Positions 1-18,955 of a DNA stretch of 20,129 bases are shown here, in pieces (position 1 is the first letter of the stretch; every line of letters starts with the position of its first letter). Source of the stretch: a virus. The position numbers and the translations under genes were made by a program. The notes beneath the pieces were generated by a model. That model was not told where the DNA came from and did no database searches. It saw only the letters and a program-made list of their open reading frames with translations. The DNA is taken from the IMG/VR virus record IMGVR_UViG_3300037137_003002, positions 1 to 20,129 of that record; one strand, 5' to 3'.

Positions 1-756
1 AAAAGCGGAATTACTTCACATAAAAACTCAATACTTGAAATCAGAACATGTTTAAATCATGCTTGTAATAAAGCGATTGAAATAACGAAATCATCTATTG
101 GAAAAAAATATTGTTCACATTTTTGTTATTCTTCAGCAGATGAAACAAGCAATTCAAGATCTGTAAGGATGTCAGAGCTGAACCCGATGTTTAATTCCAA
201 CACTGTAGATCGTATGAGAAATTCGTGGCGCAATAATTGGGACAATGTTCGAACAGAAGTTAGTAAACTGGCGCAAATAAATCGTTTCAAAGATGCTCCT
301 TTACATCAAAATAGAAAGGTGCCAAATACATTAGAACAATCAGTTATTGATCTCGATATTCCAAGCCTTGTTTTTACAGGACTTGGTGAAAAATGGGTTA
401 CTTTTAAAAATGGTAAACATAAAAATCCCGATTTTATTATTGAAGGCACGAATAAAGTTGTCGAAGTCGGTGATGTATATTTTTGGCATACAGAACAAGA
501 AATTGAAGAAACAATTAAACTATATTCAGAAATCGGATATGAATGTCTTTATTTGACAAACAAGGAGATCGAAGAGTCATCTGAAAAATCATTTTTGAAA
601 CTTCAAAAATTTGTGTGTAATCATGATGTAAAAATTTCAAATATTAGAAAAATTGAAAAACCAAAAAGCTGGTCTGAGAGAACTGATCATTACAAATACA
701 ATATAGAAGTTGAAGATAATCATAATTATTTTGCTAATTCAATTCTTGTTTCAAAT
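1..756 (+). mobile_element. Intein, C-terminal portion, with zinc-ribbon plus Vsr-like (EDxHD) homing-endonuclease domain
   Basis: The splice end is visible directly. NIEVEDNHNYFANSILVSN immediately precedes Cys 757-759 and matches intein blocks F and G: a VEDNHNYF core, a terminal Asn at 754-756, and a +1 Cys nucleophile. The penultimate residue is Ser, where most inteins have His. Upstream in frame is a C-x4-C...C-x3-C zinc-ribbon (Cys codons at 49, 64, 112 and 124). A NUMOD3-like NPMF segment lies near 181, followed by a nuclease-like module: NPDF around 424-435, then VVEVGD with a downstream FWHT (about 457-492), then a helix and GYECLYLTNKEI. This pattern (PD, E, D, H) resembles the Vsr/I-Bth0305I-like EDxHD family. 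The N-terminal splicing half lies outside the window, so a split intein cannot be excluded. Confidence 0.85.
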
Positions 757-1839
757 TGTCATAATACTGAGGCCGAACTTGGAAAATTTATTGAGGTGAC
801 TTTTTCTGAAAAATTTGCACGTGATATCTTGAAGTGTAAGATTCCAAAGCTTGATTCTCAAGAAGCAGTTTATGAATGGGTAAAGACTTCATATCGAAAG
901 TCTGTGAATAAATACGTAAGAGAACTTGAAAAAAATCTAACAAAGTTATCAGACGCAACAACAGGTTATGGAGAATTTTCAAAGCAATATGAAATGCTAG
1001 AAAAACACTCAGGAAAAGTAGATCAATTTCTTGAAGTCTATTCTGCAACAAACTGGGTGATGAATATTGCTTATCCTCAGATTGGAAATCGAAGAGGTGC
1101 TAGAAAGTTTGAATTCAAGCCAATCGATCTTTCGTTGTATAGTCAAAAAACACTATTCAGATCAGGAAAACGATTGCTTATGATGTCTGCTACTGTTGTA
1201 GATAAAGATGTTTTTTGTTCATCGCTCGGCTTAAACCCTGCTGAAGTAGATTATTTAAGAATTCCGTCACCATTCCCTATAGAAAATCGACCAATTCACT
1301 ACATACGTGCAGGGTCGATGTCAAAAAATAATATCGACAAGACGCTGCCTGTAATGGCAGAAGCAGTAAAGTTGCTTCTTGAAAAACATCAGAACGAAAA
1401 GGGAATCATTCATACAACTTCATTCAAAGTTGCAAAGTATCTAATTGAAAATATTCGATCGAATAGAATTCTGTCACATGATTCATCAAATAGAGATGAA
1501 ATTCTAAAGAAGCATATTAGCTGCAAAGAACCAACTGTCATAATAAGTCCTTCAATGATGGAAGGTGTAGATCTTGCCGACGATTCATCTAGATTCCAGA
1601 TACTCTGTAAAATTCCATTTCCATTTCTTGGAGATCTCGTTGTTTCAAAGCGAATGGAACGAAATAGGCAGTGGTATCCTTACACTACAGCAAAATCAAT
1701 AATTCAATGCTTTGGTAGATCTGTTAGAAATGAGAATGATCATGCAATTTCATACATTCTTGATACAGATTGGGAACGATTCTATTCTAGAAATTCACAT
1801 ATGTTACCTGAGGAATTTAGAGCATCTCTTCGATCGTAG
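1..1839 (+). CDS. DinG/XPD-like superfamily 2 helicase, C-terminal part, with in-frame intein (5' partial)
   Basis: The reading frame is open from base 1, so the true start lies upstream. Bases 1-756 encode the C-terminal part of an intein. The C-extein begins with Cys-His-Asn at 757-765, which reads as the end of a DEAH/DECH-type motif II (Walker B). Further helicase motifs follow: Ser-Ala-Thr (motif III-like) at 1186-1194, KGIIHTTS (motif IV region) near 1399-1422, a motif V-like stretch ending EGVDLADD at 1543-1584, and motif VI QCFGRSVR at 1705-1728. This order, with FPF-type loops between motifs, matches the Rad3/XPD/DinG helicase C-terminal domain (HELICc2). From the family, the role is ATP-driven DNA unwinding in the host cytoplasm during phage replication or repair. 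The ATG at 169 is not the start, because an in-frame zinc-ribbon lies upstream of it. An FeS cluster cannot be judged here, since that part is off-window. A small gene follows after about 50 bp. Confidence 0.85.
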   Translation, partial: KSGITSHKNSILEIRTCLNHACNKAIEITKSSIGKKYCSHFCYSSADETSNSRSVRMSELNPMFNSNTVDRMRNSWRNNWDNVRTEVSKLAQINRFKDAPLHQNRKVPNTLEQSVIDLDIPSLVFTGLGEKWVTFKNGKHKNPDFIIEGTNKVVEVGDVYFWHTEQEIEETIKLYSEIGYECLYLTNKEIEESSEKSFLKLQKFVCNHDVKISNIRKIEKPKSWSERTDHYKYNIEVEDNHNYFANSILVSNCHNTEAELGKFIEVTFSEKFARDILKCKIPKLDSQEAVYEWVKTSYRKSVNKYVRELEKNLTKLSDATTGYGEFSKQYEMLEKHSGKVDQFLEVYSATNWVMNIAYPQIGNRRGARKFEFKPIDLSLYSQKTLFRSGKRLLMMSATVVDKDVFCSSLGLNPAEVDYLRIPSPFPIENRPIHYIRAGSMSKNNIDKTLPVMAEAVKLLLEKHQNEKGIIHTTSFKVAKYLIENIRSNRILSHDSSNRDEILKKHISCKEPTVIISPSMMEGVDLADDSSRFQILCKIPFPFLGDLVVSKRMERNRQWYPYTTAKSIIQCFGRSVRNENDHAISYILDTDWERFYSRNSHMLPEEFRASLRS

Positions 1840-14523: not shown

Positions 14524-15396
14524 ATGTTTGTTTATAAGATAAAGAACAACATCAATGGAAAGTTGTATGTCGGCAAGACATCAAAGACATTAGATGCACG
14601 CCTGCGCGTTCATGTTCAGCATACATGTGAGACGCATTATAGAAAACAACTCATAACTAAGGCAATTAGAAAATATGGTGTAGAATCATTTGAAATGACA
14701 GTTCTTGAAGAATGTGTCGATAATGATACTGCATCTAACAGGGAAAAATTTTGGATCAAGGAACTTGACACGAAGAATCGATTAGTAGGGTATAATATGA
14801 CTGACGGCGGCGAAGGAACGCCCGGGCGCATTGTGACCGATGAAACGCGTCAAAAATTGAAGAACAGAGTTTTTTCTGATGAGACGCGTCAAAAAATGTC
14901 AGCATCTGCAAAAAAGAAGATTATTTCAGAAGAAGTTAGAATCAGAAAATCTTTGAAACAATCTGCTTCAATCGCTGGAAATAAGAATCCTTTTTTTGGA
15001 AAAGATTGGGGCCGCAAGGGACCTCTTTCTGAAGAAACTAAAACAAAACTTTCAGCTGCACATAGAGGCAAGATTCTCTCTGATGAACATAAATCACGAA
15101 TTCGCGCAGCAATGAAAAAAGTTGACAGATCTATTATCAGTTCAAACAAAGGAAAGGTTTGGCCGATATTTGGTTATGTTAATGAAGAACTTACATATGT
15201 GTATGATGGGTTCGATAGTGCTTCGCGTTCACTGAATGTTGAGATTAAAAAACTTCGTGTAATGACACAACAAAAAATTGAAGCTAGTGGTATTTTACTG
15301 AAAAAAGGTAATAGAATGAGCAGAGAAGATGTTGAAATGTTAAGAGAAAAGCTTGAAGTTGAAAGATCCGGAGGGTACAGTCATGGGCTGGCTTGA
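14524..15396 (+). CDS. GIY-YIG homing endonuclease with NUMOD3 repeats
   Basis: This 290-aa protein starts with a GIY-YIG nuclease domain (about 1-95). The motif is degenerate (VYKIKNNINGKLYVGKT): Tyr4 and Tyr15-Val-Gly stand in for GIY and YIG. Catalytic-type Arg26 and Glu74 are present, followed by NMTDGGEG. Four DNA-binding NUMOD3-like helices follow (TDETRQKLKN, SDETRQKMSA, SEETKTKLSA, SDEHKSRIRA), with a NKNPFFGK turn among them. A NUMOD1-like HTH stretch ends the protein (YVYDGFDSASRSLNV, about 225-245). Such proteins cut a specific allele and copy their own gene by recombination. The gene is free-standing between two structural genes. Its 3' end runs through the Shine-Dalgarno and start of the next gene, overlapping by 14 bp. 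The start at 14524 has only a weak AAAGG close to the ATG. No intron hallmarks were seen around it. Confidence 0.88.
   Translation: MFVYKIKNNINGKLYVGKTSKTLDARLRVHVQHTCETHYRKQLITKAIRKYGVESFEMTVLEECVDNDTASNREKFWIKELDTKNRLVGYNMTDGGEGTPGRIVTDETRQKLKNRVFSDETRQKMSASAKKKIISEEVRIRKSLKQSASIAGNKNPFFGKDWGRKGPLSEETKTKLSAAHRGKILSDEHKSRIRAAMKKVDRSIISSNKGKVWPIFGYVNEELTYVYDGFDSASRSLNVEIKKLRVMTQQKIEASGILLKKGNRMSREDVEMLREKLEVERSGGYSHGLA
15370..15375 (+). promoter_or_regulatory. Strong Shine-Dalgarno inside the GIY-YIG gene that fixes the next start
   Basis: GGAGGG lies 7 nt before the ATG at 15383. It favours that start over an in-frame upstream ATG at 15353, which would add MKLKDPEGTV and has no comparable site. 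It also encodes the C-terminal residues of the endonuclease. Confidence 0.8.
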
Positions 15397-17537: not shown

Positions 17538-17564
17538 GTTATGACGTATGGAACACGTCATAAC
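17538..17564 (+). promoter_or_regulatory. Hairpin placing the start codon of the zinc-finger endonuclease in its loop
   Basis: GTTATGACGT (17538-17547) and ACGTCATAAC (17555-17564) form a perfect 10-bp inverted repeat. The 7-nt loop ATGGAAC contains the ATG at 17548. No Shine-Dalgarno is visible upstream. Structures that hide initiation signals are known for phage homing-endonuclease genes, such as I-TevI in T4. Here such a role is inferred. Confidence 0.65.
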
Positions 17565-18660
17565 ATGCACACATTGCAGTAACCAATTCACTTCGCGTAA
17601 GAAAAAGAAGTTCTGTACACAAAAGTGTTACTTCGAATCCAAAGACAAAACTGTCACATTGACATGTGTTCACTGTTTGCAGACGTTCACAAAGCCATAT
17701 CGATTTCGTGAATCAAAGACGTGTTCTCGTGAATGCTTCTCTGCACATATGTCAAAAATCGTCGATACAAGCACTAAGAAGAAGTGTCTTGCATGCGGAA
17801 ATGATTTTGATGTTCCCAAAGGATCTGTTGACAAGACGAAGTTCTGTTCATATGACTGTTTCTTGTCAACACGTAAGACAAGACAACCACCTACAGTCAT
17901 AATCTGTAAGAACTGCAAAAAAGAGTTCTCTGTTAATGCAGGCAGATCTAAAACAAGACAGTTCTGCGGAAAGTCATGTTCAAATTCAGGTGAATTCAAT
18001 GCAGCCTATGGAAAACCAGGGTCAATGACAGGTAGATCACCGTGGTCAAAAGGTTTAACAAAAGAAACAGATGTTCGACTTGAACTATTGGGAAAAAAGA
18101 TAAGCAAAGTGATACACGATCAGTTTTCATTAGGGTGCCGTACACATTCTGGCAAAAGTAATCCAAATTATGGACATACATCTGAAACACTGACATCAGA
18201 ACAAAGACAAAGATATTCTGAAGCTGCTGTCAAAAGGATCCTAGCAGGAGTATCAGGATATAAAACGAAACACATAACGGGCATTTACGATGCCTTGAAG
18301 TCTGCACCAGTAAAATTCAAATCTTCTTGGGAGCTGGTAGCAATGATGTGGTGGGATCAGTGTGATGATGTTTTTTCGTACAAATATGAATCCAAAGTCT
18401 TTATTATCGAAGGTCAAAGAAGGGTTATTCCTGATTTTCTATTGTGTTATAATAACGGAATGCAAGTGATTATTGAAATTAAGCCAACAGCATTACAAAA
18501 TACACCTGTCATATCAGAAAAGCTTGAAATGACTCGAATTGCTGTCGAAAAAAGCGGTTTGAAGTATGAATTGATTGGAAATGAGACTATCGACAAAATG
18601 AAAAAAGAGTTAGGAGAAAAATTCATTTATGAAATCAAAAAATATCAAAGTAGGAAATAG
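17548..18660 (+). CDS. Four-zinc-finger PD-(D/E)XK homing endonuclease
   Basis: This 370-aa protein has four tandem C-x2-C...C-x3-C treble-clef-like fingers: Cys 7/10/23/27, 40/43/59/63, 80/83/100/104 and 120/123/140/144. A linker with a NUMOD3-like GKSNPNYGHTSETLTSEQR (about 202-220) follows. The C-terminal nuclease has FKSSWE (Glu262), VIPDF (Asp296) and IIEIKP (Glu310, Lys312), the PD-(D/E)XK core. This layout is typical of free-standing phage homing endonucleases of the TnsA-like/PD-(D/E)XK type. It cuts DNA at a specific target and spreads by recombination. It sits between two structural genes and overlaps the downstream metallopeptidase gene by 32 bp. Its start codon is in a hairpin loop, which suggests translational control. 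Confidence 0.85.
   Translation: MEHVITCTHCSNQFTSRKKKKFCTQKCYFESKDKTVTLTCVHCLQTFTKPYRFRESKTCSRECFSAHMSKIVDTSTKKKCLACGNDFDVPKGSVDKTKFCSYDCFLSTRKTRQPPTVIICKNCKKEFSVNAGRSKTRQFCGKSCSNSGEFNAAYGKPGSMTGRSPWSKGLTKETDVRLELLGKKISKVIHDQFSLGCRTHSGKSNPNYGHTSETLTSEQRQRYSEAAVKRILAGVSGYKTKHITGIYDALKSAPVKFKSSWELVAMMWWDQCDDVFSYKYESKVFIIEGQRRVIPDFLLCYNNGMQVIIEIKPTALQNTPVISEKLEMTRIAVEKSGLKYELIGNETIDKMKKELGEKFIYEIKKYQSRK
18612..18617 (+). promoter_or_regulatory. Shine-Dalgarno for the metallopeptidase gene, inside the preceding gene
   Basis: AGGAGA lies 11 nt before the ATG at 18629, within the last codons of the endonuclease gene. It supports the overlapping start. Confidence 0.65.
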
Positions 18661-18955
18661 AAAATACACAATTCTTTTGTTGACTGATGAAGATTTCGAT
18701 CAGACATTGTCAAAAAAAGGAGTTGATGATGTAGACATAAAAAGCTTTATTGACTATGATGATCAAATAATCTGTGTGAGATCGAGACTTAAACAAGATC
18801 ATCGTCAAGAATTGATTTTGCACGAACTCTTACATGCTTGTGCAGAGGATGCAGGCCTTAAGCAAGATGAAAAGTTTGAGGAATTTGTTCTATCTTTTTC
18901 ACCAAGGCTAAGTGTACTTATTTCATCTGGCTTGCAGGATATTTTGATTGACTGA
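18629..18955 (+). CDS. Small HExxH metallopeptidase-like protein
   Basis: This 108-aa protein has the zinc-peptidase motif HELLHA at residues 65-70 (His65, Glu66, His69). Acidic candidates for a third ligand follow: Glu73, or Glu84/Glu85 in EKFEEFVLSF. The preceding SFIDYDDQIICVRSRL region could be the strand beneath the active-site helix, as in ImmA/IrrE-type or other minimal gluzincin folds. Substrate and location are unknown; it has no signal peptide or HTH domain. In phages, such proteins may process virion or host proteins. It overlaps the preceding endonuclease gene by 32 bp and has its own AGGAGA, so it is probably the original gene following the 457-aa structural gene, displaced by insertion of the homing endonuclease. 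A 55-bp spacer follows. Confidence 0.7.
   Translation: MKSKNIKVGNRKYTILLLTDEDFDQTLSKKGVDDVDIKSFIDYDDQIICVRSRLKQDHRQELILHELLHACAEDAGLKQDEKFEEFVLSFSPRLSVLISSGLQDILID

What the first reader, a model, noticed from the sequence alone, without database searches (positions are those of the whole stretch)
1..765. Intein inserted inside motif II (DEAH box) of a phage DinG/XPD-like helicase
Intein blocks F/G end with Asn directly before Cys-His-Asn, which looks like the second half of the DE(A/C)H motif. Inteins favour catalytic cores. An insertion exactly within Walker B would silence the helicase until splicing occurs, and DECH (Cys) would supply the +1 nucleophile.
Basis: partly seen in the sequence, partly recalled or inferred. 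Interest (0 to 1): 0.75.

Follow-up and report, generated by a model that had tools for sequence, protein, structure and literature searches.

The report
Intein inside phage helicase's DECH motif
A virus of bacteria carries a self-removing protein insert that splits the most essential ATP-burning motif of a DNA helicase exactly in two; related inserts sit at the same point in other, very different helicases, so the insert seems to follow the motif rather than one gene.

Summary
The window is a 20,129-base phage fragment that begins inside an intein. Its first 756 bases encode 252 intein residues (nuclease domain plus blocks F and G, ending SN), followed by the helicase C-extein starting CHNTEAELG. 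The missing N-half cannot be read here, but relatives supply it. Uninserted phage DinG/XPD-type helicases with the same gene neighbours read ...VVDE-CHN... with no gap. L211, a complete precursor with a 53% identical intein, reads LLILDE|CLRPETK...ILVSN|CHTTEG. L030, a contig ending inside the intein, reads LLVVDE|CLRDDAK. Splicing therefore rebuilds DECH, with a Cys at +1 that many uninserted helicases already have. The L211 intein model has the HINT fold and a second domain resembling the EDxHD homing nuclease I-Bth0305I. Beyond the finding: the closest inteins outside DinG (38-41% identical) occupy the same motif II point in ResIII/UvsW-type helicases whose exteins show no BLAST similarity to DinG. 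A pattern scan found 85 viral loci with DE|C...N|CH[H/N] inteins. Inteins at the DinG site are not one clade (p-AU 0.0017). So motif II is a recurrent intein site, entered several times. Splicing, helicase silencing and active homing are inferred, not tested.

The parts
1..756 (+). C-terminal 252 residues of an intein (about 139 N-terminal residues missing by comparison with L211), interrupted by the start of the record
   Evidence: open frame; 52.8% identity to L211 intein residues 142-388
64..195 (+). probable DNA-binding part of the homing nuclease: Cys/His cluster (C22, C26, C37, H40, C42) and NUMOD3-like NPMF stretch (residues 61-64)
   Evidence: sequence and alignment A5; no Pfam match, so weakly supported
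316..624 (+). EDxHD-like (I-Bth0305I-like) nuclease domain: E112, PDF 143-145, KVVEVG 152-157, WH 162-163
   Evidence: hmmsearch of A7, best PDB chain 3r3p E 0.0069; Foldseek of the L211 intein model, 3r3p_B E 4.5e-3 prob 1.00
691..735 (+). intein block F (YKYNIEVEDNHNYFA)
   Evidence: TIGR01443; conserved in A5
736..756 (+). intein block G (NSILVSN), terminal Asn252, penultimate Ser instead of the usual His
757..765 (+). +1 Cys-His-Asn: second half of helicase motif II (DE|CHN)
757..1839 (+). C-extein of a DinG/XPD-type helicase, 360 aa, then stop
1387..1776 (+). Helicase_C_2 domain (PF13307)

Best explanation
The window starts inside a homing intein that interrupts motif II (Walker B) of a phage DinG/XPD-type helicase between Glu and Cys (VVDE|CHN). 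Inferred mechanism: the precursor carries the Mg-binding Asp and catalytic Glu on one side of about 390 foreign residues and the motif's His on the other, so it should not hydrolyse ATP. The intein splices by the standard class 1 route (Cys1, block B His, terminal Asn, +1 Cys) and leaves intact DECHN. The +1 Cys is the helicase's own residue, already present in intein-free DECH relatives. An embedded EDxHD-type nuclease would cut intein-free alleles and copy the intein in. The same intein lineage also sits at the same codons of ResIII/UvsW-type helicases, so it has crossed between helicase families at least once. Shown by sequence: site, junction, domains, alleles, intein conserved more than host. 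Inferred: splicing, silencing, homing, direction and mechanism of the cross-family move.
For: Intein C-terminus and helicase C-domain at the junction. Intein-free homologues read DE-[CA]HN at the same point. Complete same-site allele L211, intein 52.8% identical to the window's over 250 aa; L030 N-half allele 52.5% identical to L211 over 80 aa. Genes upstream of L030 and downstream of the window both flank the helicase in the same relatives. L211 intein model: HINT fold, Z 19.5 to the NrdJ-1 intein, plus an I-Bth0305I-like domain. Other intein types at the DinG site: LAGLIDADG in L108/L193 and L148; others in L085 and L114. Window intein against the L213 intein in a ResIII-type helicase: 41%, E 8e-47, while the C-exteins show no similarity (E 0.73); L211 against L213 intein 37.6%, E 4e-73. 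Within DinG the intein is more alike than its host: 52.8% against 42.5%.
Against: The window's own blocks A and B and N-extein are off the record, so the left side of the junction is read only from relatives. The penultimate His is Ser. The window-only model was poor (pLDDT 40). Nuclease identification rests on weak sequence and moderate fold scores. No splicing, ATPase or cleavage data exist. EDxHD nucleases are reported to use targets near 60 bp (PMC3943268), while the two helicase families share only about GAYGAG|TGYCAY at the site, which does not by itself explain a jump between families.
Confidence: 0.9

Rival explanations
1. Split (trans-splicing) intein or fractured gene: in this phage the N-half lies in a separate ORF, as in phage STP4-a uvsW or phage G gp221/gp223.
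For: Split inteins at exactly this motif exist (L092, L095, L090). The window's N-half is unseen.
Against: The window frame stays open to base 1 through the nuclease. The closest relatives L211, L213, L214, L215 are contiguous with the nuclease inside.
Confidence: 0.05
2. Degenerate, no longer splicing intein or decaying gene.
For: Penultimate Ser; relative L214 has WY instead of WH in the nuclease.
Against: Frame intact. The ending LVSN is shared by all six sequences of this intein type that reach the C-terminus, so Ser is a lineage trait. The helicase domain scores normally.
Confidence: 0.05
3. Several independent origins of similar inteins at motif II through convergence, without any movement between helicase families.
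For: The need for a +1 Cys and conserved codons limit where inteins can sit.
Against: Window-type inteins in DinG and ResIII hosts share nuclease, splicing domain and the LVSN end over their whole length (E down to 4e-73), and holding DinG-site inteins as one clade is rejected (p-AU 0.0017).
Confidence: 0.1

Closest known systems
Walker B intein of mycobacteriophage large terminase (TerL1-e; PMC5050341)
   Same: Intein inside the Walker B motif of a phage P-loop ATPase
   Different: Host is a packaging terminase; here a DinG/XPD-type SF2 helicase, with an EDxHD-like nuclease
I-Bth0305I, EDxHD homing endonuclease (PDB 3r3p; PMC3943268)
   Same: Best PDB sequence match and a high-probability fold match of the nuclease domain
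   Different: The solved enzyme is named a mobile intron protein; this one sits inside an intein splicing domain; final Asp of the motif not placed
NrdJ-1 split intein (PDB 8ubs)
   Same: Closest HINT fold by Foldseek and VIA-align
   Different: A split intein (solved as a fusion); here contiguous with a nuclease inside, in a helicase
Split intein in uvsW of Salmonella phage STP4-a and in phage G gp221/gp223 (read here)
   Same: Same DE|CH motif II point in an SF2 helicase
   Different: Gene is broken in two and, in STP4-a, a TnsA-like nuclease ORF lies between the halves

Membership tests
Intein (class 1) | C-terminal blocks F and G with terminal Asn before +1 Cys/Ser/Thr | tested here: met
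   TIGR01443 E 5.8e-8 in the window; N252|C+1
Intein (class 1) | Block A with Cys1 directly after the N-extein and block B T-x-x-H | tested here: inconclusive
   Off the window. Present in same-site alleles L211 (C1, TANH) and L030 (C1, TDNH)
Intein (class 1) | HINT fold | tested here: inconclusive
   Met for the 53% identical L211 intein (Z 19.5); the window fragment alone gave a poor model
Intein (class 1) | Intein-free alleles continuous across the insertion point | tested here: met
Intein (class 1) | Protein splicing activity | not testable with these tools
   needs expression
EDxHD homing endonuclease | Conserved catalytic Glu, Asp and His in the Vsr-like fold | tested here: inconclusive
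   E112, D144, H163 present; I-Bth0305I is the best PDB sequence hit (E 0.0069) and a fold hit (E 4.5e-3); final Asp not assigned; His lost in L214
DinG/XPD-type FeS helicase | Helicase_C_2 domain and DinG/YoaA/Rad3 similarity | tested here: met
   PF13307 E 1.6e-18; NF053712 E 2.2e-19; TIGR00604 rad3 E 3.7e-7; all NCBIfam scores are far below the equivalog cut-offs, so it is of this type, not DinG or YoaA itself
DinG/XPD-type FeS helicase | Four Cys between motifs Ia and II for an FeS cluster | tested here: inconclusive
   Invariant in relatives (C113, C121, C144, C148 of L003) and in L211; the N-half of the window gene is not held

The most novel reading that the evidence does not exclude
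One intein lineage treats a protein motif, not a gene, as its niche: its nuclease tolerates the variable flanks and uses the near-invariant codons of DE|CH, so it passes among helicase families that share only motif II, and hosts with DECH rather than DEAH are the susceptible ones because they already supply the +1 Cys.
Probability: 0.35. Interest if true: 0.7.

Novelty: new variant of a known kind. Interest (0 to 1): 0.52.

Why it matters
Inteins are reported to cluster mostly by their own host genes (PMC5784728, for eukaryotic inteins). Here one lineage is found at the same codons of helicases whose flanking sequences are unrelated by BLAST, and motif II of SF2 helicases turns out to be a repeatedly entered intein site in phages, largely hidden in records annotated only as 'DNA helicase'. 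It offers a set of natural inteins with native DE|C junctions and a direct test of whether splicing gates a helicase.

Tried and rejected
Patterns drawn from the window intein alone found nothing in viral contigs; the hits came later from profile and block patterns. The L211 intein has no match at E 1e-5 in 50,697 named phage records. Joining L030 and the window as one phage was considered: GC 0.351 and 0.362 and shared neighbours fit, but by L211 numbering about 59 residues lie between them and no overlap exists, so it is left open. A link between the intein nuclease and the free-standing nuclease ORF 17548-18660 was not supported (hhalign probability 9%). The structure of the window fragment was too poor to use. 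Two literature searches were too broad to help; no held paper found describes the motif II site, which does not show that none exists.

Full report
WHAT THE WINDOW HOLDS. The record is a 20,129-base virus fragment. Its first frame is open from base 1 to 1839, 612 aa. Residues 1-252 end in YKYNIEVEDNHNYFANSILVSN, a good intein C-terminus (TIGR01443 E 5.8e-8; PF14890 below its cut-off). From base 757 the protein is CHNTEAELGKF..., a DinG/YoaA/Rad3-type helicase C-half (PF13307, NF053712, TIGR00604, phrog_2488).

THE EMPTY SITE. Seventeen viral contigs encode helicase relatives without an intein (44-78% identity). Read upstream of the matching residue they give ...LLVVDE (or a close variant) directly before CHN (15) or AHN (2). 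The N-extein alignment shows motif I, four invariant Cys as expected of FeS helicases, and ...DE[CA]HN. A wider scan with the N-extein alignment gave 65 loci, nearly all reading DE-[CA]H; over distinct contexts 25 have Cys and 31 Ala. So splicing here restores DECHN, and the +1 Cys is a normal residue of the host family.

THE MISSING HALF, FROM RELATIVES. L030, at the end of its contig, reads LLVVDE|CLRDDAKILIDIGLECSIGEIYKNHNITHVMSYN... with TVTDNH as block B. L211 holds a whole precursor, LLILDE|CLRPETK...ITVTANHKIWT...ILVSN|CHTTEG, with the gap of alignment A6 exactly between DE and CH. The L211 intein is 52.8% identical to the window's over 250 aa and 52.5% to L030's over 80 aa. Genes upstream of L030 and downstream of the window both flank the helicase in the same intein-free relatives, so the window's left side is expected to be the same gene. 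Whether L030 and the window are one phage is not settled.

FOLD AND NUCLEASE. AlphaFold2 of the L211 intein with six relatives has mean pLDDT 68. VIA-align gives the HINT fold, Z 19.5 to the NrdJ-1 split intein, rmsd 2.0 over 139 residues. Foldseek also returns the catalytic domain of I-Bth0305I (3r3p_B, E 4.5e-3, probability 1.00), and a profile of the nuclease region (A7) has 3r3p as its best PDB hit (E 0.0069). Invariant positions are E112, P143 D144 F145, K152, V153 and E155 of the window; H163 is kept in the window, L211, L213, L212 and L215 but is Tyr in L214. I read this as an EDxHD-like nuclease; whether it cuts is unknown.

MORE THAN ONE INTEIN TYPE AT THE DinG SITE. L085 (and L084), L108/L193, L114 and L148 are phage DinG-type precursors with inteins at the same point. 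L108 and L148 carry LAGLIDADG_2. Holding the five DinG-site inteins (L211, L085, L108, L114, L148) together as one clade is rejected (p-AU 0.00167), with the cautions of a short 140-column alignment and several poorly supported branches.

THE SAME POINT IN OTHER HELICASES. A pattern for block F/G followed by C-H-[HN], which says nothing about the left side, matched 114 viral loci. In 85 the same frame holds DE|C[FLIVS] and a block A upstream; most of the other 29 are cut by the locus end or look split. Nearly all C-exteins fall in one cluster with ResIII/UvsW/XPB-like SF2 helicases; named examples are Vibrio 159E43-1b and K391, Pseudomonas MR14, Corynebacterium phi673, and split forms in Salmonella STP4-a, Bacillus phage G and Pectobacterium Sabo. 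The relatives of the window's intein outside DinG, L213, L212, L214 and L215, are at this point in ResIII-type hosts. Window against L213: inteins 41% (E 8e-47), C-exteins none (E 0.73). L211 against L213: inteins 37.6% (E 4e-73), N-exteins none (E 1.1). Within DinG the intein is more alike (52.8%) than its host (42.5%). Both facts point to horizontal movement. The DNA shared across families at the site is about GAYGAG|TGYCAY.

HOW IT MOST LIKELY WORKS. From established knowledge of SF2 helicases, the Asp and Glu of DExH bind Mg and activate water and the His couples ATP use to unwinding. An insert between Glu and the next residue should block ATP hydrolysis until splicing. This is inference; nothing here measured activity. 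That splicing of a Cys-dependent junction in a probable FeS helicase might be redox-gated is only a thought.

PLACE AMONG KNOWN THINGS. Inteins in Walker B are known from terminases (PMC5050341), and inteins in helicases are known (PMC5784728). I found no held paper on the motif II site of DinG/XPD or other SF2 helicases, but key intein papers are not in the library, so priority is not claimed. I file the window as an intein, with a nuclease that works like an EDxHD enzyme, membership there unproven.

Noticed in passing
window 14524-15396 (+): Free-standing GIY-YIG plus NUMOD3 homing endonuclease ORF among structural genes (PF01541 E 2.3e-13; TIGR01453 E 1e-24).
   Followed up: partly
window 17548-18660 (+): Zinc-finger-like Cys pairs with a TnsA-like nuclease domain (PF08722 E 9.4e-7), 25% identical to the nuclease ORF inside the split uvsW intein of STP4-a: a third homing-type nuclease in 20 kb.
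   Followed up: partly
window 18629-18955 (+): Small M78/ImmA-like metallopeptidase whose start overlaps the end of the nuclease ORF (PF06114 E 6.8e-4, phrog_1233 E 2e-11).
   Followed up: no
L212 1849-5472: One ResIII-type helicase with two inteins about two dozen extein residues apart, one in motif II (DE|CHR) and one in motif III (L|SATP).
   Followed up: no
L216, L217, L222: Phage QueE-like radical SAM proteins with inteins at CSF|CD whose nuclease resembles the window's.
   Followed up: partly
L294 and L292: Cellular-genome contigs with inteins at DE|CHN of other ATPases: a HerA/VirB4-like protein of an Aenigmatarchaeota MAG and a SNF2-like protein in a proteobacterial MAG (host families judged by eye).
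   Followed up: no
L114, L085, L087-L089, L091: Many motif II inteins have a long uncharacterised insert without a LAGLIDADG match between blocks B and F, possibly another or a decayed nuclease type.
   Followed up: no
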